Shown: positions 418-20,857 of the stretch, piece after piece | Position numbering within the stretch: position 1 is the stretch's first letter | How the letters are laid out: each line of letters begins with the position of its first letter | Virus record (IMG/VR): IMGVR_UViG_3300028027_000284 | Span: 1 to 20,857 of that record | Origin: a virus | Reading direction: 5' to 3' (one strand) | DNA length: 20,857 nucleotides | Position numbers and translations under genes: made by a program | The notes under the pieces: model-generated | What the model was told of the DNA's origin: nothing | What the model saw: the letters and a program-made list of their open reading frames with translations, nothing else | Database searches by the model: none

Positions 418-720
418 ATGACACAAGAGGATGAAAAATTTATAGAAGAAAACATTTACAACTTTGAATGCGTAAAGATAGGGTTCATGAAAAACCTTCC
501 CTTGCATATCTTGGTTGGATATGAGCAGATTTACAGAAGGTATCTTGACCCTGGGTTTATTCTTACCAGTTGGTGCAGCAATTGTGTTGCCGACATGATG
601 AAAAGACTTGCAAGGTATTGGGATGAATACCAAGCACAAAAGCAACTTGATGCAGAAGTTGTACAAGAACCTGTACAAGTACCAAAGAAAAAAGGTAGAC
701 CATTTAAAAACAAGCAATGA
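418..720 (+). CDS. Hypothetical protein with basic, AT-hook-like tail
   Basis: This is a 100-residue soluble protein that I do not recognise by function. The first 75 residues are mixed alpha-helical and include the segment YEQIYRRYLDPGF and a CSNC pair. The C-terminus is rich in Gln, Val and Lys and ends in KKKGRPFKNKQ, whose GRP core flanked by basic residues resembles an AT-hook that inserts in the DNA minor groove. Its stop overlaps the start of the glycosyltransferase gene by 4 nt (ATGA at 717), so it belongs to the same translationally coupled cluster. DNA binding is only an inference from the tail. Confidence 0.65.
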   Translation: MTQEDEKFIEENIYNFECVKIGFMKNLPLHILVGYEQIYRRYLDPGFILTSWCSNCVADMMKRLARYWDEYQAQKQLDAEVVQEPVQVPKKKGRPFKNKQ

Positions 721-1718
721 GAATTATAACAGTCGGTCAACGTAACTCAGGGGTATCTTTCCATAGGTTGTTTAATCCATTAATCTACCTGCCGAAAGAT
801 TACGCAATGATGACCGATGTACTTACTGAGGAAGAACTTGAGAAAGGTTATGACATACTTTTTATCAATCGGTACATAGCAGGGATGGAGATTGAGAAAG
901 TTGTAAGATTGAAAGAGAAGTACGGATTCAAGTTGGTAGTTGATATAGATGACTTTTGGCATCTTGACCCTTGGCATATCCTTTACGGAAAATATCCTAC
1001 TAAAAAGGTCATTGACCATATGAAGGTAGCGGACATGGTCATCTGTTCAAATGAACTCTTGGCATTGGAGATATACCAATACAATAAAAACTGTATGGTA
1101 GTCCCTAATGCTTTACCTTATGGAGAAGACCAGTTTACAGATGTAAAGACTGAATCTGATAAGGTCCGATTTGTTTATGCAGGGTCAATAACTCACGGCA
1201 AGGATATTGCAATACTTAAAAATCCCATGAAGAGGGTGGCAGGGGATTCAATGGTAAAGAATAACTCAACCTTTATCCTTTGCGGTTATAGTGAAGATAA
1301 GCACGTAGCAAACGAATGGGGCAGGATGATTAACGATTACCTTCACGGGTTCAAGGTTGATGGGTATATACGTGCAGCGTTACCAGTGGACCAATACATG
1401 AACTTTTATAATGAAGCAGATGCCTGTCTTGTTCCTTTGGTAGATTCTAAGTTTAACTCAATGAAGTCTAACCTTAAGGTCCTTGAGGCAGCAACTAAAA
1501 ATGCACCTGTTATATGTTCCAATGTTCAACCTTATGCAGATTGTAAGCATATCATAAGAGTAAACAATCAGTCTGACTGGTTCATAAATATTAAAAAAGT
1601 TGTTAAGGATGCTATTTATAGGAAAGAGATGGGTCTTGCCAATGGGGAATGGTGCAGGGAGAACTTTAATCTTGTCAAGGTAAATGAATTAAGGACACAG
1701 ATATTTAACTCATTATGA
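717..1718 (+). CDS. GT-B fold glycosyltransferase (GT4-like)
   Basis: This 333-residue protein has the two-domain layout of a GT-B sugar transferase. The N-terminal half carries VVDIDDFWHLDP (about 74-84) and a second short acidic and aromatic region. The C-terminal half starts at VRFVYAGSITHGKD (about 150-163) and contains ADACLVPLVD followed by FNSMKSNLKVLEAATKNAP (about 234-264). That matches the nucleotide-sugar-binding region of GT4-like enzymes, where an acidic residue of the KxxE-type segment contacts the donor. It probably acts in the cytoplasm with a nucleotide-sugar donor; the acceptor is unknown. It overlaps both neighbours by 4 nt and is the first of three glycosyltransferases in this cluster. 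Confidence 0.85.
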   Translation: MRIITVGQRNSGVSFHRLFNPLIYLPKDYAMMTDVLTEEELEKGYDILFINRYIAGMEIEKVVRLKEKYGFKLVVDIDDFWHLDPWHILYGKYPTKKVIDHMKVADMVICSNELLALEIYQYNKNCMVVPNALPYGEDQFTDVKTESDKVRFVYAGSITHGKDIAILKNPMKRVAGDSMVKNNSTFILCGYSEDKHVANEWGRMINDYLHGFKVDGYIRAALPVDQYMNFYNEADACLVPLVDSKFNSMKSNLKVLEAATKNAPVICSNVQPYADCKHIIRVNNQSDWFINIKKVVKDAIYRKEMGLANGEWCRENFNLVKVNELRTQIFNSL

Positions 1719-1942
1719 AAGCAACACTGACCTTTGACCTTGATGAACCTGATGATAAGATAGAGCATTTAAGATGTGTGCAGTCATCTGAACTGTATTC
1801 TGCGGTATTTGATTTTATACAGAACTCAAGAAAGAGATTAACCGAGAAGGCGGTTGAGGTATGGACTGCGATACTTGCAGGTGGTAAGTATACAGACAAG
1901 AAACCAAAAGAAAAGAACACAAAAACTAAACTCAATGGGTAA
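1715..1942 (+). CDS. Small hypothetical phage protein
   Basis: This 75-residue protein begins MKATLTFDLDEPDDKIEH, a strand-forming, acidic N-terminus, followed by an amphipathic helix (LYSAVFDFIQNSRKRL) and a very basic tail (DKKPKEKNTKTKLNG). Small phage proteins of this pattern (TFDL then an acidic turn, then a helix with paired basic residues) are common in phage genomes, but I know of no established role. Its start is the ATGA shared with the stop of the preceding glycosyltransferase, and its last 8 nt overlap the next glycosyltransferase. That tight coupling is the best evidence that it is real. Confidence 0.7.
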   Translation: MKATLTFDLDEPDDKIEHLRCVQSSELYSAVFDFIQNSRKRLTEKAVEVWTAILAGGKYTDKKPKEKNTKTKLNG

Positions 1943-2717
1943 AGTCTTAATAGCAATGGCAGTGCATGATACTTATGAAAATAAGAGGTCAGAACTTACT
2001 GAGGCGGTCCTGCATGAATTAAAATATCAGGATGTTTTCACAGACCATGACTTTTGGGTAATAGATAATAACTCTTGCCAAGCAACTAAAGATATTATCC
2101 AACATTATGAAGATGAAGGTCTGATTAATGTCATCACTAATGAGCAGAACATTGGAACTGCTGAAGCGGTTAATCTTGCATGGAAGCATCGTAAAGCAGG
2201 TCAGCACTGCATCAAGATGGACAATGATGTTATCATAAACTATTATGACTGGGTAAAGGAAATGGTGGAGGCAATTGAAAGAGAACCAAAGATTGGAATT
2301 GTAGGTCTGAAGCGTAAGGATTGCTGGGAAGAACCGAATCATGCCTTGCCTGATTGGAGAAGCGAGTTGATAATGTTGCAACATTTTGCAGGTCAGCGGT
2401 GGATAATCGTTGAAAAGTGCCACCACATTATAGGTACTTGCCAAATGTACTCATCCGCTTTGCTTGACAAAATTGGTTACCTTTGCCAACCTAACCTCTA
2501 TGGTTACGATGATGTACTTGCATCACATAGGTCAACAGTAGCAGGAATGTGGAATGTATTTCTTCCGCACATTGAGATAGACCATATTGATAAAGGAGAA
2601 ACCGAATATCAAACGTGGAAAGAAAAACACAGTTCTGAGGTAACCCAAGAAGTTATCAAAATGACCCACGAATATTATCACGGTACAAGACCAATATACT
2701 ACAATCCTTTCCAATGA
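1935..2717 (+). CDS. GT-A fold glycosyltransferase (family 2-like)
   Basis: I start this gene at ATG 1935 (MGKVLIAMAVHDT) because the frame upstream encodes only a basic non-homologous-looking extension and lies inside the preceding gene. The resulting 260-residue protein has the GT2 pattern. A first strand is followed by VIDNNS (about 42-47), then NIGTAEAVNLAWKHR (72-86) and the metal- and sugar-nucleotide-binding DND at 96-98. A later acidic segment, LYGYDDVLAS, probably supplies the catalytic base. It should transfer a sugar from a nucleotide-sugar donor with inversion; the acceptor is not predictable. It overlaps the small gene before it by 8 nt and the next glycosyltransferase by 4 nt. 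Confidence 0.88.
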   Translation: MGKVLIAMAVHDTYENKRSELTEAVLHELKYQDVFTDHDFWVIDNNSCQATKDIIQHYEDEGLINVITNEQNIGTAEAVNLAWKHRKAGQHCIKMDNDVIINYYDWVKEMVEAIEREPKIGIVGLKRKDCWEEPNHALPDWRSELIMLQHFAGQRWIIVEKCHHIIGTCQMYSSALLDKIGYLCQPNLYGYDDVLASHRSTVAGMWNVFLPHIEIDHIDKGETEYQTWKEKHSSEVTQEVIKMTHEYYHGTRPIYYNPFQ

Positions 2718-3334
2718 AAGTAATCGTATCACTTGACAATCCGAATCATGCAGGGTGGTTAAAGTTAGAGGAATCCCTTAAACGGCATGGATGGGATTAC
2801 CATCCAATCGTAAAAGAATGGAAAGGGTTTGGCACTAAGATAATAGGACTTTACGAGTACCTTTGTTCAACCGATACGGATGAGTTCATTTACTTGGATG
2901 CATACGATAACTACTGCATAGCAGGACCTCAAGAGTTCAAGTTTAAAAAGAAAGACTACCCTATGATAGTATCAAGTGAGAAAGGGTGTTATCCTGACAC
3001 GCATAAAATGGGAATGTTTCCTGTGGTATACCATGAATGGAAGTATTTAAATAGTGGGCAGATATACGGAAACAAGGAACATTTTCTTAATGTATACCTT
3101 AGCAACCCTCCGAGGTTTGAGGATGATGACCAGAGGTGGTACACTGAACGCTTCCTTGCAATGCCTTACAGCATAGGACTTGACTATTGTAACATCTTTC
3201 AATCAGTAGCGTTTGAGGTTGAAGGTGACTTTACTTTAACCTATAATAGATTGTACAATAATAAGACCCATACCTTTCCTATGTTTATTCATGGGAACGG
3301 GAAAACCGATATGACTAAATTTTACGCACTATGA
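2714..3334 (+). CDS. PLOD/LH3-like glycosyltransferase (procollagen-type GT domain)
   Basis: This 206-residue single-domain protein keeps the ordered motifs of the glycosyltransferase domain of lysyl hydroxylases (human LH3/PLOD3). They are IYLDAYD (59-65, a DxxD metal-binding pair D62/D65), LNSGQIYG (112-119, compare LNSGGFIG in LH3), EDDDQRWYTERF (136-147), LDYCNIFQ (156-163) and FIHGNGKT (191-198), where the His is the third metal ligand in LH3. The fold should bind Mn2+ and a UDP-sugar. The animal enzymes glycosylate hydroxylysine, but no hydroxylase domain or separate hydroxylase is seen here, so the acceptor is unknown. Similar domains occur in other viruses and bacteria. It is coupled by ATGA overlaps on both sides. 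Confidence 0.85.
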   Translation: MKVIVSLDNPNHAGWLKLEESLKRHGWDYHPIVKEWKGFGTKIIGLYEYLCSTDTDEFIYLDAYDNYCIAGPQEFKFKKKDYPMIVSSEKGCYPDTHKMGMFPVVYHEWKYLNSGQIYGNKEHFLNVYLSNPPRFEDDDQRWYTERFLAMPYSIGLDYCNIFQSVAFEVEGDFTLTYNRLYNNKTHTFPMFIHGNGKTDMTKFYAL

Positions 3335-4002
3335 TGGAATGGATAGTAAAAGAATACACGGATAAGGTCAACGCAGACCATGAACTAAAAGCATATCGGG
3401 ACTGGATAGAAGAAAACGCATTCGGATTCGGCGAAAGATGCTTTCTTTGGATGTGGAATGAGATAGTACAAAAGATGCCTCAAGAGTTTACCTTTATGGA
3501 GATAGGGGTCTTCAGAGGTCAGATTCTCGGACTGGTTAAACTACTTGCAGACCGACACGGCAAAAAGGTTAGGCGAATCGGAATCACACCACTTGATTCA
3601 TCTGATGGTCATTGGGAATCTGACTACGAAGCAGATATTATAAGACTTCACGATGAGTTTGATATTACGGCAGACTATGAGTTAATCCGTTTAGATTCAA
3701 CCAATCCAAACGCAGTTAAACTTGCATCTCAGAATCCTCCTGATGTACTTTATATTGATGGAGGGCATACCTATGAGGTGGTAATGGCAGACCTCAATAA
3801 CTATCTACCTATTCTCAAGGTAGGCGGTACACTGGTCATTGATGACTGTAACAACGCAATACCAATGCCTTGGGGTTACTTCGCAGGGATTCAATCGGTA
3901 TCAAACGCAGTAGACCAATTCCTGCCAAGAGAAGGACAGACAGAACATTGGAAGCATGAACTAAACTTGGTGCATAATCGTGTACTCACTAAACTGAAAT
4001 AA
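3331..4002 (+). CDS. SAM-dependent class I methyltransferase (Methyltransf_24-like)
   Basis: This 223-residue protein has the Rossmann-type SAM-binding motif FMEIGVFRGQ (about 55-64), with the acidic E57 and glycine turn. Motif DVLYIDGGHTYE (138-149) and then VGGTLVIDDCNN (164-175) follow. The YIDGGHTYEVVMADL segment is characteristic of sugar or small-molecule O-methyltransferases of the Methyltransf_24 / cephalosporin-hydroxylase-like group, where the DD pair often binds a metal. Following three glycosyltransferases with a 4-nt overlap, it may cap or modify the added sugar; that is inference. It is not a typical DNA methyltransferase: no DPPY or PCQ motif is present. TerS begins 1 nt downstream, so the modification genes run straight into the packaging genes. 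Confidence 0.85.
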   Translation: MMEWIVKEYTDKVNADHELKAYRDWIEENAFGFGERCFLWMWNEIVQKMPQEFTFMEIGVFRGQILGLVKLLADRHGKKVRRIGITPLDSSDGHWESDYEADIIRLHDEFDITADYELIRLDSTNPNAVKLASQNPPDVLYIDGGHTYEVVMADLNNYLPILKVGGTLVIDDCNNAIPMPWGYFAGIQSVSNAVDQFLPREGQTEHWKHELNLVHNRVLTKLK

Positions 4003-4003
4003 G

Positions 4004-4435
4004 ATGGCAAAGAGAGGAGAAAATAAACCACCAATAAAGCAAAAATACATAGACACACCCGATAATCTTCTAAAGATATGGGATGAGTATAAGCAACACA
4101 TTGACAATAATCCAGATGTCCAAGAGATAGCAACGGGTAAAGGTGTGCAAGTTATAAGGGTTAAGAAACCATACCAAAAAGTAGGGTTTGAGAGTTTTGT
4201 TTTTAGGAATTATGGGTTCAATGTTCATCAATATATTGACAATTATAAGGGTGCATACGATTCCTATTTGGGAGTCGTTACGTGTATGAGAAGAGAATGG
4301 GAGGAAGACCAAATAGAGGGAACGCTTACAGGTAGATACAAAGCACCTAATTTGGTAGCAAGACTTAACAACCTGGTAGAGAAGACTGAGAATAAACATG
4401 AGGTAAGTGAGATAAAGATAACGAGGGATAGATAA
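4004..4435 (+). CDS. terS: Terminase small subunit (P22 gp3-like)
   Basis: This 143-residue protein lies immediately before the large terminase. Its sequence (TPDNLLKIWDEYKQHID, then KPYQKVGFESFVFRNYGF, YLGVVTCMRREWEEDQIEG, YKAPNLVARLNNLVEK) follows the pattern of P22 gp3-like and Bacteroidota-phage small terminases: a DNA-recognition N-terminal part and a helical oligomerisation part. TerS recognises the packaging initiation site and hands the DNA to TerL. It starts 1 nt after the methyltransferase stop. A short dyad follows its stop codon and could be a binding site. The identification rests on position plus pattern. Confidence 0.8.
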   Translation: MAKRGENKPPIKQKYIDTPDNLLKIWDEYKQHIDNNPDVQEIATGKGVQVIRVKKPYQKVGFESFVFRNYGFNVHQYIDNYKGAYDSYLGVVTCMRREWEEDQIEGTLTGRYKAPNLVARLNNLVEKTENKHEVSEIKITRDR

Positions 4436-4467: not shown

Positions 4468-5640
4468 ATGCAAATAAATGTAAAACTACATAACCCACAC
4501 GATGCTCAAAAGAAGGTCATAGATTGCGATAAAAGGTTTATCGTAATGATGGCAGGGCGAAGGTTTGGCAAGTCCTTAATCAGTCAGACAATTGCCTTAG
4601 AAAGCGGTATAGAGGGTAAGAGGGTGGCATACATTACACCAACGTATCAACTCGGTAAAATATTCTTTCAGGAGTTGCTTGATATGTTACCCATTGAGAT
4701 TTACAAAAAGAATGAGGCAGACTTGGTCATAACCTTTATCACAGGTGGAACAATCCGATTCTTCACAGGTGAAAGGTTGGACAATCTCCGAGGTCTGAAG
4801 TTTCACCTTTGTATCATTGATGAAGCATCTTTCATCCCTGATTTAGAGGGTGGATGGTTAAACTCCATCCGTCCCACTTTAACTGATTATAAGGGACGGG
4901 CATTGTTCCTGTCTACCCCAAAGGGTAAGAACTACTTCTATTCTCTTTTTATGAAAGGGAACGGAGGGGAAGAAGATTGGCAATCGTTTAAGTTTAGCAC
5001 ATATGACAATCCATACATAGATAAGTCAGAGGTTGATTCGGCAAGGATGCAATTACCTGAAGTAGTCTTTGAACAGGAGTACATGGCGAACCCTGCCGAG
5101 AATGCTGCCAATCCTTTTGGGTCTGCTTACATTCGCCAGTGCATATTCCCGATGTCTACCAATCCTGTTGCTTGTTATGGCATTGACCTTGCCAAAGCGG
5201 TTGACTGGACTGTGGTTATAGGACTTGATAAGAACGGGTCTGTATGCCATTATGAACGATTTCAGAGGGATTGGAGGCAGACTAAGGAGTATATCATCAA
5301 TCTACCTAAAGCACCTATCCTAATGGATTCTACGGGGGTAGGAGACCCAATCTTTGAAGATATGCAAAGGGAGGGTCTTGATGTGCAAGGGTATAAATTT
5401 AGCAGTACCTCAAAGCAGATGCTAATGGAGGGACTTGCATCTGCTATTCATCAAAGGAAGATAACCTTCCCACCTGGTCCTATCGTTGATGAACTTGAAA
5501 TCTTTGAGTACCAGTACACATCCTTTGGGGTAAAGTACTCAGCACCTCAAGGATTCCATGACGATTGCGTTGTTAGTCTGTCCCTTGCTTGGCAACATCT
5601 CCAAAAGAATGTAGGCAGTGGGAGGTATAGTTTTATTTAG
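4468..5640 (+). CDS. terL: Terminase large subunit (ATPase and nuclease)
   Basis: This 390-residue packaging motor shows a Walker A-like AGRRFGKS (about 29-36), a Walker B CIIDEA (about 115-120), and the coupling motif FLSTPKGKNYF. The C-terminal RuvC-like nuclease follows, with acidic clusters in YGIDLAKAVDWTVV, LMDSTGVGDP and FHDDCVVSLSLAW. It translocates DNA into proheads and cuts concatemers. Both ATPase and nuclease motifs are intact, so it appears functional. The frame also allows a TTG start at 4462, but ATG 4468 (MQINVKLHNP) is preferred. The length is slightly short for TerL but complete in motifs. The portal gene is not adjacent, unlike in most phages. Confidence 0.96.
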   Translation: MQINVKLHNPHDAQKKVIDCDKRFIVMMAGRRFGKSLISQTIALESGIEGKRVAYITPTYQLGKIFFQELLDMLPIEIYKKNEADLVITFITGGTIRFFTGERLDNLRGLKFHLCIIDEASFIPDLEGGWLNSIRPTLTDYKGRALFLSTPKGKNYFYSLFMKGNGGEEDWQSFKFSTYDNPYIDKSEVDSARMQLPEVVFEQEYMANPAENAANPFGSAYIRQCIFPMSTNPVACYGIDLAKAVDWTVVIGLDKNGSVCHYERFQRDWRQTKEYIINLPKAPILMDSTGVGDPIFEDMQREGLDVQGYKFSSTSKQMLMEGLASAIHQRKITFPPGPIVDELEIFEYQYTSFGVKYSAPQGFHDDCVVSLSLAWQHLQKNVGSGRYSFI

Positions 5641-5668
5641 GGGACTAAGTTAGGGACTAAGTTAGGGA
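5641..5668. repeat. Tandem 12-bp direct repeat after terL
   Basis: The unit GGGACTAAGTTA occurs twice in a row directly after the terL stop codon (5641-5652 and 5653-5664), followed by a partial third copy, GGGA. It could be a binding site or simply slippage-generated DNA; only its presence is certain. Confidence 0.6.
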
Positions 5669-5716
5669 GGAAACTACCAACTAAAATATTTTTTAAAATA
5701 AATAAGATAAAATGTG

Positions 5717-19906: not shown

Positions 19907-20857
19907 ATGAGCATTGATGTAAACGTACAAAATGATTTAGTCATTGTAACTGAGAGCAGTGAAGACATAACGGTTAACGTTAGCAATGCAGCAGGACCAG
20001 CAGGACCAGCAGGTGCAGCAGGTGTTGGAGTTCCTACTGGTGGTAGCACGGGTCAAATATTGAAAAAACTTAGCAATACTAATTATGATACTTATTGGGC
20101 ATTAGATGGTGGTGGTGTTCCTTATAGTGGAGCAACAGGTGATGTAGACTTGGGCGAATATGAACTCAAAGCGGGTCAAGTTGAGTTTGACCAAACACCA
20201 ACGGGAACAGCAGGAGTTGGGGTAATGAGATGGAATGATAGTGATGGGACAGTTGATTTGGGTTTGAAAGGTGGCAATGTAACGCTTCAAGTTGGACAAG
20301 AGCAAATACTTAGGGTAGTAAACAAAACAGGTTCAGACCTGCTTGAGAGTCAATATAGTGCGGTAAGGATTAGATTAGCAGCAGAAGGCGGTTCACAAGG
20401 TCAGAGGTTAGCGGTTGTTCTCGCACAAGGCAATAATGATGCCAATAGTAGTGATACAATCGGAATCGTAACTGAGACAATTACCAATAATCAAGAAGGA
20501 TTCATTTGTACGAGTGGTATTGTTAGGGGAATCAATACAACAGGAAGTCTACAAGGCGAAACATGGGCAGATGGTGACATCATTTATTTGAGTCCTACTA
20601 CGGCAGGAGCAATTACAAAGGTTAAGCCTACTGCACCAAACCATTCTGTAATACTTGGGTATGTAATCTATGCTCATGCTGTCAATGGTAAGATATTCGT
20701 AAAATGTGATAACGGGTATGAGATAGGTGAATTGCATGATGTTTACGCACCTTCTCCATCCAACAATGATGGAATATTTTGGAATACTGCTAATCTTAGG
20801 TATCAAAACAATAGCATTGCAGGAGTATTAGGATATACTCCTGTTCCTACTACACGC
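19907..20857 (+). CDS. Tail fibre protein, 3' end beyond the window
   Basis: The frame opens at ATG 19907 and stays open for 317 codons to the right edge, so no stop is present in the window. It starts MSIDVNVQNDLVIVTESSED and a short collagen-like run (GPAGPAGAAGVG, residues 30-41) follows. Beta-rich segments come next (QILKKLSNTNYDTYWALDGG; LGLKGGNVTLQVGQEQILRV), with a long region ending near SVILGYVIYAHAVNGKIFVK. The final AGVLGYTPVPTTR is a GYTP-type repeat common in phage tail fibres. It should form an elongated trimer for host recognition; the receptor-binding tip is missing here. It lies 3 nt after the adaptor-like gene. Confidence 0.8.
   Translation, partial: MSIDVNVQNDLVIVTESSEDITVNVSNAAGPAGPAGAAGVGVPTGGSTGQILKKLSNTNYDTYWALDGGGVPYSGATGDVDLGEYELKAGQVEFDQTPTGTAGVGVMRWNDSDGTVDLGLKGGNVTLQVGQEQILRVVNKTGSDLLESQYSAVRIRLAAEGGSQGQRLAVVLAQGNNDANSSDTIGIVTETITNNQEGFICTSGIVRGINTTGSLQGETWADGDIIYLSPTTAGAITKVKPTAPNHSVILGYVIYAHAVNGKIFVKCDNGYEIGELHDVYAPSPSNNDGIFWNTANLRYQNNSIAGVLGYTPVPTTR
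19994..20029 (+). repeat. Collagen-like triplet run in the tail fibre gene
   Basis: Four G-x-y triplets (GPA GPA GAA GVG) are encoded, with the 9-nt unit GCAGGACCA repeated at DNA level (19991-20008). Short Gly-Pro-Ala stretches are frequent trimerising linkers in phage fibres. No Lys lies within the run. Confidence 0.7.

What the first reader, a model, noticed from the sequence alone, without database searches (positions are those of the whole stretch)
717..4002. Three different glycosyltransferases and a methyltransferase joined to the terminase genes
A GT-B enzyme, a GT2-like GT-A enzyme and a PLOD-like enzyme plus a Methyltransf_24-like enzyme overlap by 4-8 nt with one small protein, and terS follows after 1 nt. 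They would therefore be expressed with late packaging genes. A layered glycan with a methyl cap, on virion proteins or on phage DNA, is a reasonable inference. No base-hypermodification gene is visible in the window, which slightly favours a protein target.
Basis: partly seen in the sequence, partly recalled or inferred. Interest (0 to 1): 0.7.

Follow-up and report, generated by a model that had tools for sequence, protein, structure and literature searches.

The report
Conserved phage sugar-building gene cassette
A freshwater phage carries, directly before its DNA-packaging genes, a conserved set of three sugar-adding enzymes (one related to the enzyme that puts glucose on collagen) and a likely sugar-methylating enzyme, which most likely build a methyl-capped sugar chain on its own particle proteins.

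Summary
Window 717-4002 carries a GT-B enzyme, a small ORF, a GT2-type enzyme, a PLOD-type (collagen-glucosyltransferase) enzyme and a Methyltransf_24 enzyme. They overlap by 4, 8, 4 and 4 nt, and terS starts 1 nt later. The gene before the cassette (418-720) also overlaps it by 4 nt, so it lies inside a longer operon. All enzyme genes are under strong purifying selection. GT-B is found in 56 of 57 TerL-anchored relatives with at least 4 kb upstream; the other contig ends before it. The PLOD enzyme keeps 11 of 12 alignable active-site residues of mimivirus R699 and folds like R699/LH3. The methyltransferase resembles sugar O-methyltransferases. In one relative the PLOD enzyme and the methyltransferase are one fused protein, followed at once by terL. 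An unrelated phage lineage with a different TerL carries the same enzyme set just upstream of its own TerL and portal. DNA-hypermodification genes (TET, TAGT) are sporadic and separate. Best reading: cytosolic building of a capped glycan on virion proteins (confidence 0.6). The target, the sugars and the timing are not shown. Known kind (phage virion glycosylation), new variant.

The parts
418..720 (+). 100-aa protein of unknown function (f23), conserved directly before the cassette; overlaps GT-B by 4 nt
717..1718 (+). GT-B (GT4-fold) glycosyltransferase, 333 aa; the core enzyme of the cassette, kept in all relatives in which its place is on the contig
   Evidence: PF13692 1.4e-6; phrog_7162 1.3e-63; AF2 pLDDT 84.4; Foldseek hits GlgM, MshA, BshA, TarM, MMP mannosyltransferase; tally
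1715..1942 (+). 75-aa ORF between GT-B and GT2, weakly conserved; function unknown
   Evidence: dN/dS 0.11-0.28
1935..2717 (+). GT2-type GT-A glycosyltransferase, 260 aa, no TM segment
   Evidence: PF00535 2.5e-14; PDB profile hits 6yv7 8.1e-8 and chondroitin synthase 2z87 8.9e-8; hydropathy
2714..3334 (+). stand-alone PLOD-type GT domain, 206 aa, relative of mimivirus R699 and the human LH3 GT domain
   Evidence: PF25342 2.7e-22; 9dyt R699 3.8e-20 and 6wfv LH3 1.6e-9; 11 of 12 alignable R699 active-site residues identical; AF2 pLDDT 92.5; Foldseek ranks 1-15 all R699 or LH3
3331..4002 (+). Methyltransf_24 family, likely sugar O-methyltransferase, 223 aa
   Evidence: PF13578 3.7e-12, RMNT_CmcI 0.0012, TylF 0.018; PDB profile hits 6g7d 1.3e-4, 3ssm 0.013, 8ia9 0.03; fused to the PLOD GT in L057
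4004..4435 (+). terminase small subunit, 1 nt after the methyltransferase gene
   Evidence: phrog_606 0.0016; conserved position
4468..5640 (+). terminase large subunit (ATG 4468; ORF tool start TTG 4462)
   Evidence: phrog_2 3.6e-41; PF03237 2.8e-7
19907..20857 (+). start of the tail-fibre-like gene (cut by window end) with a 4-triplet collagen-like stretch that holds no lysine; a possible glycan acceptor only by guess

Best explanation
The cassette is a cytosolic glycan-assembly line for the phage's own proteins, most likely virion proteins. GT-B, the one enzyme that every relative keeps, attaches or extends the inner sugar (inferred). The GT2 enzyme adds another sugar (inferred). The PLOD-type enzyme, which keeps the active site of collagen glucosyltransferases, adds an alpha-1,2-linked glucose to a sugar already present rather than to protein (inferred from R699 and LH3). 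The Methyltransf_24 enzyme caps the chain by sugar O-methylation (inferred from its nearest relatives and its fusion to the PLOD enzyme). Shown here: enzyme families, predicted fold and catalytic residues of the PLOD enzyme, gene order, selection, fusion, and recurrence just upstream of TerL in two lineages. Not shown: acceptor, donors, linkages, timing.
For: (1) Core gene: GT-B in 56 of 57 testable TerL-anchored relatives; dN/dS as low as terL, MCP and portal. (2) The same enzyme types sit 3.3-4.1 kb upstream of a complete TerL-like ORF in 12 of 16 distant contigs; a 13th (L059) has that ORF cut by the contig end, L051 and L057 end too early to tell, and L046 lacks it in the stretch held. One member of the ORF family scores as TerL with phrog_6681 1.2e-68 and the next gene as portal. 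(3) L057 fuses the PLOD GT (1.7e-34) and Methyltransf_24 (2e-11) in one 453-aa ORF, 3 nt before a TerL of the window's type. (4) R699 glucosylates galactosyl-hydroxylysine and makes kojibiose, i.e. extends sugars (PMC9546862 abstract; PMC11838735 outline and passages); 11 of 12 residues kept. (5) No TM-like segment in the five cassette proteins. (6) In Synechococcus phage S-8S55 a PLOD GT homologue lies in a gene annotated as 2OG-Fe(II) oxygenase, in a group of such genes that follows the tail fibre gene. (7) DNA-hypermodification genes are rare and separate.
Against: No mass data, no known acceptor motif, and no virion protein shown to covary with the cassette. G010 and L082 lack GT2, PLOD and MT24, so most of the chain is dispensable. 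The nearest GT-B relatives with a genome context (phAPEC8-like phages) sit beside primase/helicase and DNA polymerase genes, not structural genes. In the distant lineage the genes before the cassette include a DnaG/DnaB-like one, so middle expression is possible.
Confidence: 0.6

Rival explanations
1. DNA glycosylation: the GTs decorate a hydroxylated base to block restriction, the methyltransferase caps the sugar.
For: TAGT genes occur in 4 of 36 virus records searched, TET_JBP in 1 (G031, next to TAGT), and a TAGT lies just before terS in L161. GT chains on phage DNA are known (PMC13390438 passages). The GT-B relatives in phAPEC8-like phages lie near replication genes.
Against: In most full-length relatives no enzyme that would make a hydroxylated base was found: TET 1 of 36, thymidylate-synthase family 1 of 36, C5 methylase 2 of 25. 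The cassette is present with or without TAGT/TET, and where those occur they are separate genes at varying places. Vequintavirinae and relatives incl. phi92-like phages are reported as very restriction-sensitive (PMC8594841 passages); whether the tested isolates carry this GT-B was not checked. A precursor enzyme of an unknown kind would be missed.
Confidence: 0.15
2. Host-surface glycan change (receptor masking, superinfection exclusion) as in O-antigen conversion.
For: GT2 gives a weak hit to phrog_841, GtrB-like (0.00064); phage-encoded surface modification is common (recalled).
Against: No TM-like segment in the five cassette proteins, no flippase or GtrC-type gene seen in the window or in the relatives' genes that were scanned, not all of which were. 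Strong conservation rather than allelic diversity. Upstream of TerL in two Pollutibacter prophages, in the ~8 kb held, no cassette homologue was found, although lysogens would gain most from such a change.
Confidence: 0.13
3. The enzymes modify a host cytosolic protein or a small molecule during infection (take-over or anti-defence), and the place next to terminase is historical.
For: PHROGs files the GTs under moron/host takeover; no acceptor is known.
Against: Same enzyme set next to TerL in two lineages with unrelated TerLs; four co-conserved enzymes are more than a single-target modification needs.
Confidence: 0.12

Closest known systems
Mimivirus R699 / human LH3 (PLOD3) collagen galactosylhydroxylysyl glucosyltransferase
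   Same: GT-A fold (TMq 0.82-0.86 to R699), Mn-binding D-x-x-D, and K62, D83, Y85, D86, E114, N138, D162, D163, Q164, H216, N218 of R699 all kept
   Different: No accessory domain, no hydroxylase, W118 is Tyr in the window protein (Trp in many distant relatives), collagen-cleft residue N193 is Glu; no collagen acceptor seen
Mycobacteriophage virion glycosylation (Freeman et al. 2023; recalled and as cited in PMC12619734 and PMC12691614, passages)
   Same: Phage-encoded GTs thought to act on structural proteins
   Different: Other enzyme set, other host phylum; here a PLOD-type GT and a likely sugar methyltransferase sit next to the terminase; no mass data here
phAPEC8-like phage GT run (Escherichia phage nieznany gp197-gp200)
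   Same: A protein that aligns with the GT2 profile over its C-terminal part (hhalign probability 69%, E 4.5e-5) followed by two GT-Bs of phrog_7162; GT-B 31-34% identical
   Different: No match of its first GT to the PLOD profile; next to replication genes, not terminase
Sugar O-methyltransferases MeT1 (6g7d), MycE (3ssm), TylF-type (8ia9)
   Same: Best PDB matches of the MT24 profile; D-x-x-H and D-D residues kept in all 8 rows (enzyme names beyond the PDB molecule names and the metal/catalytic role are recalled)
   Different: Weak matches (1.3e-4 to 0.03); phage protein 223 aa, acceptor unknown
TET-TAGT phage DNA hypermodification
   Same: Occurs in a few relatives of this phage
   Different: Separate genes, absent from the window and most relatives; cassette GTs are of other families

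Membership tests
Collagen-type (PLOD/R699) glucosyltransferases | GT-A fold of R699/LH3 | tested here: met
   AF2 model pLDDT 92.5, Foldseek ranks 1-15 all R699 or LH3
Collagen-type (PLOD/R699) glucosyltransferases | Active-site residues of R699 | tested here: met
   11 of 12 alignable residues identical, W118 to Tyr; W48 and K222 not covered by the alignment (residue roles from PMC11838735 passages)
Collagen-type (PLOD/R699) glucosyltransferases | Collagen with hydroxylysine as substrate | tested here: inconclusive
   Only one 12-residue Gly-X-Y stretch without Lys in the fibre protein; no PF13640 oxygenase in 36 virus records; window incomplete
Collagen-type (PLOD/R699) glucosyltransferases | UDP-glucose donor, alpha-1,2 linkage | not testable with these tools
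   needs enzyme assay
Phage virion glycosylation system | GT genes kept with structural/packaging genes over evolution | tested here: met
   56 of 57 TerL-anchored loci hold GT-B upstream of TerL; second lineage
Phage virion glycosylation system | Glycans on virion proteins | not testable with these tools
   needs mass spectrometry
Phage DNA glycosylation | Enzyme that makes a hydroxylated base (TET/JBP or thymidylate-synthase-type) | tested here: not met
   none in the window by family search (TET, control silent there; TAGT PF20691); relatives: TET 1 of 36, PF00303 1 of 36 virus records; the missing ~14 kb of the window's genome is untested
O-antigen conversion (gtrABC) | Membrane flippase and membrane GT | tested here: not met
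   No TM-like 19-residue window in the five cassette proteins (highest mean hydropathy 1.33); no such Pfam/PHROG hit in the window proteins scanned
TylF/MycE/MeT1-type sugar O-methyltransferases | Sequence relation and D-x-x-H / D-D metal-base residues | tested here: met
   (motif meaning recalled); E-values weak

The most novel reading that the evidence does not exclude
A whole group of uncultured freshwater phages, probably of Bacteroidota, and an unrelated second phage lineage carry a dedicated, packaging-linked virion-glycosylation island in which a collagen-type glucosyltransferase, cut down to its catalytic domain and free of collagen and lysyl hydroxylase, extends a glycan that is then capped in an exchangeable way: by O-methylation in the window's group, by a hexapeptide-type acyltransferase in the sister group.
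Probability: 0.4. Interest if true: 0.72.

Novelty: new variant of a known kind. Interest (0 to 1): 0.52.

Why it matters
Glycosylated phage particles are known from few phages (recalled). If true, glycan-coated virions are a core trait of a phage group seen in many metagenomes, and a collagen-type glucosyltransferase works without collagen. The stand-alone, soluble 206-aa enzyme and the PLOD-methyltransferase fusion make the chemistry directly testable, and mass spectrometry of virions could settle the target at once.

Tried and rejected
Genome-contig scan with the PLOD alignment found no relative; the second scan with TerL found Chitinophagaceae and Pollutibacter loci. Looked for bacterial PLOD GTs: 4 of 395 Bacteroidota genomes have PF25342; their ~3.5-kb loci showed no match to cassette families other than PLOD, apart from weak hits in L168. 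Promoter, terminator and TAnnTTTG scans gave no more than shuffles, so the transcription unit is not defined. Collagen as acceptor was considered and is not supported. The PDB sequence profile of GT-B found nothing; its fold is generic GT4. Papers: Freeman et al. 2023 is not held, so it is recalled and cited through others. Searches of open-licence PMC papers listed none whose title or abstract start describes a PLOD-type GT next to phage terminase genes; subscription papers were not searchable. 'Freshwater' is my impression of the sample set (water-type metagenomes with many near-identical relatives) and comes from no call; sample names were not looked up.

Rows left out or doubled: the 80 TerL loci are the best of at least 599; tallies use those with at least 2.5 or 4 kb upstream (67 and 57 of 80). 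L053 and L055 look near-identical, as do L048 and L049, so the 16 distant contigs are fewer independent cases. dN/dS rows with saturated dS gave no number.
Full report
What is there. The window is a 20,857-base virus record, about 60% of a ~35-kb genome, judging by relatives of 33-36 kb, three of which end in a 127-base direct repeat (G003, G005, G009). Window 717-4002 holds five overlapping genes: GT-B, a 75-aa ORF, GT2, a PLOD-type GT and a Methyltransf_24 enzyme. They are followed after 1 nt by terS and then by terL. The gene at 418-720 also overlaps GT-B by 4 nt. Nearly all genes of the relatives lie on one strand, so close spacing by itself is weak evidence; conservation is the better test.

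Conservation. Of 80 TerL-anchored relatives (the best of at least 599 matches), 57 have at least 4 kb upstream of terL: all four enzyme families in 18, GT2+GT-B in 33, GT-B alone in 4, and GT2+MT24+PLOD in 2. In one of those last two GT-B lies just outside the counted stretch, in the other the contig ends before it, so GT-B is present in 56 of 57. Among 20 loci with the PLOD gene, 19 keep the order GT-B, GT2, PLOD, MT24, terL. L082 and L084/G010 lack GT2, PLOD and MT24 but keep GT-B. A sister group (G005 type) has GT2 then GT-B, no PLOD and no MT24, and a gene upstream whose homologue in L161 is a hexapeptide-type acyltransferase (PF00132 2.1e-18). dN/dS against up to nine relatives of the window's own group is 0.05-0.11 for GT-B, 0.02-0.07 for GT2, 0.03-0.08 for PLOD and 0.05-0.08 for MT24, against 0.03-0.11 for terL, 0.05-0.15 for MCP and 0.05-0.10 for portal; dS is mostly near or above 0.8, so these are rough.

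A second lineage. Sixteen contigs found through the PLOD gene (31-42% identity) carry GT2 and PLOD together in 16 of 16 and MT24 in 14 of 16, and a GT-B-type protein in 15 of 16, in one of them elsewhere on the other strand. A complete TerL-like ORF of 676-725 aa follows PLOD after 3.3-4.1 kb in 12 of 16; L059 has it cut by the contig end, L051 and L057 end too early, and L046 lacks it in the stretch held. One member scores phrog_6681 TerL 1.2e-68 and its neighbour phrog_6547 portal 3.2e-39; the window's TerL is phrog_2. That TerL's relatives are phages of Flavobacterium, Cellulophaga, Tenacibaculum and Maribacter; two annotated ones examined show no gene annotated as a GT upstream of TerL. 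L057 is the bridge: GT-B, GT2, a homing-endonuclease-like gene, a second Methyltransf_24, then one 453-aa ORF with PLOD GT (1.7e-34) and Methyltransf_24 (2e-11), then a TerL of the window's own type. Such a fusion supports action on one product.

The PLOD enzyme. phmmer finds mimivirus R699 (9dyt, 3.8e-20) and human LH3 (1.6e-9). The AF2 model (pLDDT 92.5) matches R699 and LH3 in Foldseek ranks 1-15. Eleven of 12 alignable R699 active-site residues are identical; W118 is Tyr93. R699 puts glucose on galactosyl-hydroxylysine with UDP-glucose (PMC9546862 abstract) and also makes kojibiose from glucose (PMC11838735 outline and passages), i.e. it extends sugars. The phage protein lacks the accessory domain. 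No acceptor collagen is evident: the fibre protein has one 12-residue Gly-X-Y stretch without Lys, and PF13640 oxygenases were not found in 36 virus records. In the phage collection only nine Synechococcus phage records hold a relative, about 30% identical. In S-8S55 it is part of a gene annotated as 2OG-Fe(II) oxygenase in the group after a tail fibre gene.

The other enzymes. The MT24 profile's best PDB matches are 6g7d (1.3e-4), 3ssm (0.013) and 8ia9 (0.03); that 6g7d is MeT1 and 3ssm MycE is recalled. D143, H146, D171 and D172 are invariant in eight rows; that these are the metal/base residues of sugar O-methyltransferases is recalled. GT2's profile matches 6yv7 and chondroitin synthase. 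The GT-B model (pLDDT 84.4) is a generic GT4 fold, top match GlgM. Its phage relatives are mainly phAPEC8-like coliphages, about 31-34% identical, where GT2-like and two GT-B genes lie in a run of four GTs beside replication genes; this does not favour a structural-gene link there.

DNA target? In 36 virus records TAGT is found in 4 (G011, G031, G033, G035), TET_JBP in 1 (G031), and the thymidylate-synthase family in 1 (G006). A C5 methylase is found in 2 of 25. Where TAGT occurs it lies at different places, between f36 and f22 in L030 and (by position and size, in an unannotated 284-aa ORF) L100, between GT-B and terS in L101 together with TET, and before terS in L161, while the cassette's GT-B is there regardless. 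The window has no TAGT or TET match (the TET control was silent in that call, but the model did ring in G031). Many records are fragments, so absence is not proof.

Host. TerL relatives of 59-64% identity lie in a Chitinophagaceae MAG and in Pollutibacter soli contigs; in the latter no cassette homologue was found upstream of TerL in the ~8 kb held. A Bacteroidota host is likely; the MAG contigs could be mis-binned.

Reading. Soluble enzymes, co-conserved with packaging genes in two lineages, a PLOD GT fused to a sugar-type methyltransferase, and no base-hydroxylating enzyme in most relatives together favour a methyl-capped glycan on phage proteins. The acceptor, sugars and timing remain inferred. 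The kind of system (phage virion glycosylation) is known; the enzyme set and its place are, as far as the searches named in Tried and rejected show, not described.

Noticed in passing
L023, L039, L073-L082, L084 (upstream of terL): terS comes as an exchangeable module: all 13 loci with the terS2 type (DUF5681) carry a homologue of a ParB_N + N6/N4 DNA methylase just upstream, against 2 of 55 loci with the other terS (families); a link between DNA methylation and packaging-site recognition is worth testing.
   Followed up: partly
L101:1642-3253, L030:3723-4622, L100:1946-2800, L161:6871-7605: Sporadic TAGT genes, once with TET_JBP, in close relatives: a separate, possibly mobile DNA-glycosylation module.
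   Followed up: partly
window 4004-4435: terS is only about 41-43% identical to relatives whose terL is 93-98% identical, so terS is mosaic.
   Followed up: no
window 5641-5670: Short tandem repeat (gggactaagtta) directly after terL, in a gap that holds different small genes in relatives.
   Followed up: no
L057:3210-4571: PLOD GT fused to Methyltransf_24 in a single ORF, a compact candidate for enzyme assays.
   Followed up: yes
L056:7337-7957, L057:2636-3250: A second Methyltransf_24 gene next to the cassette in the distant lineage.
   Followed up: no
L162, L163 (Pollutibacter soli): TerL and portal relatives inside 421-601 kb bacterial contigs, i.e. likely prophages related to this phage group without the glycan cassette in the stretch seen.
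   Followed up: partly
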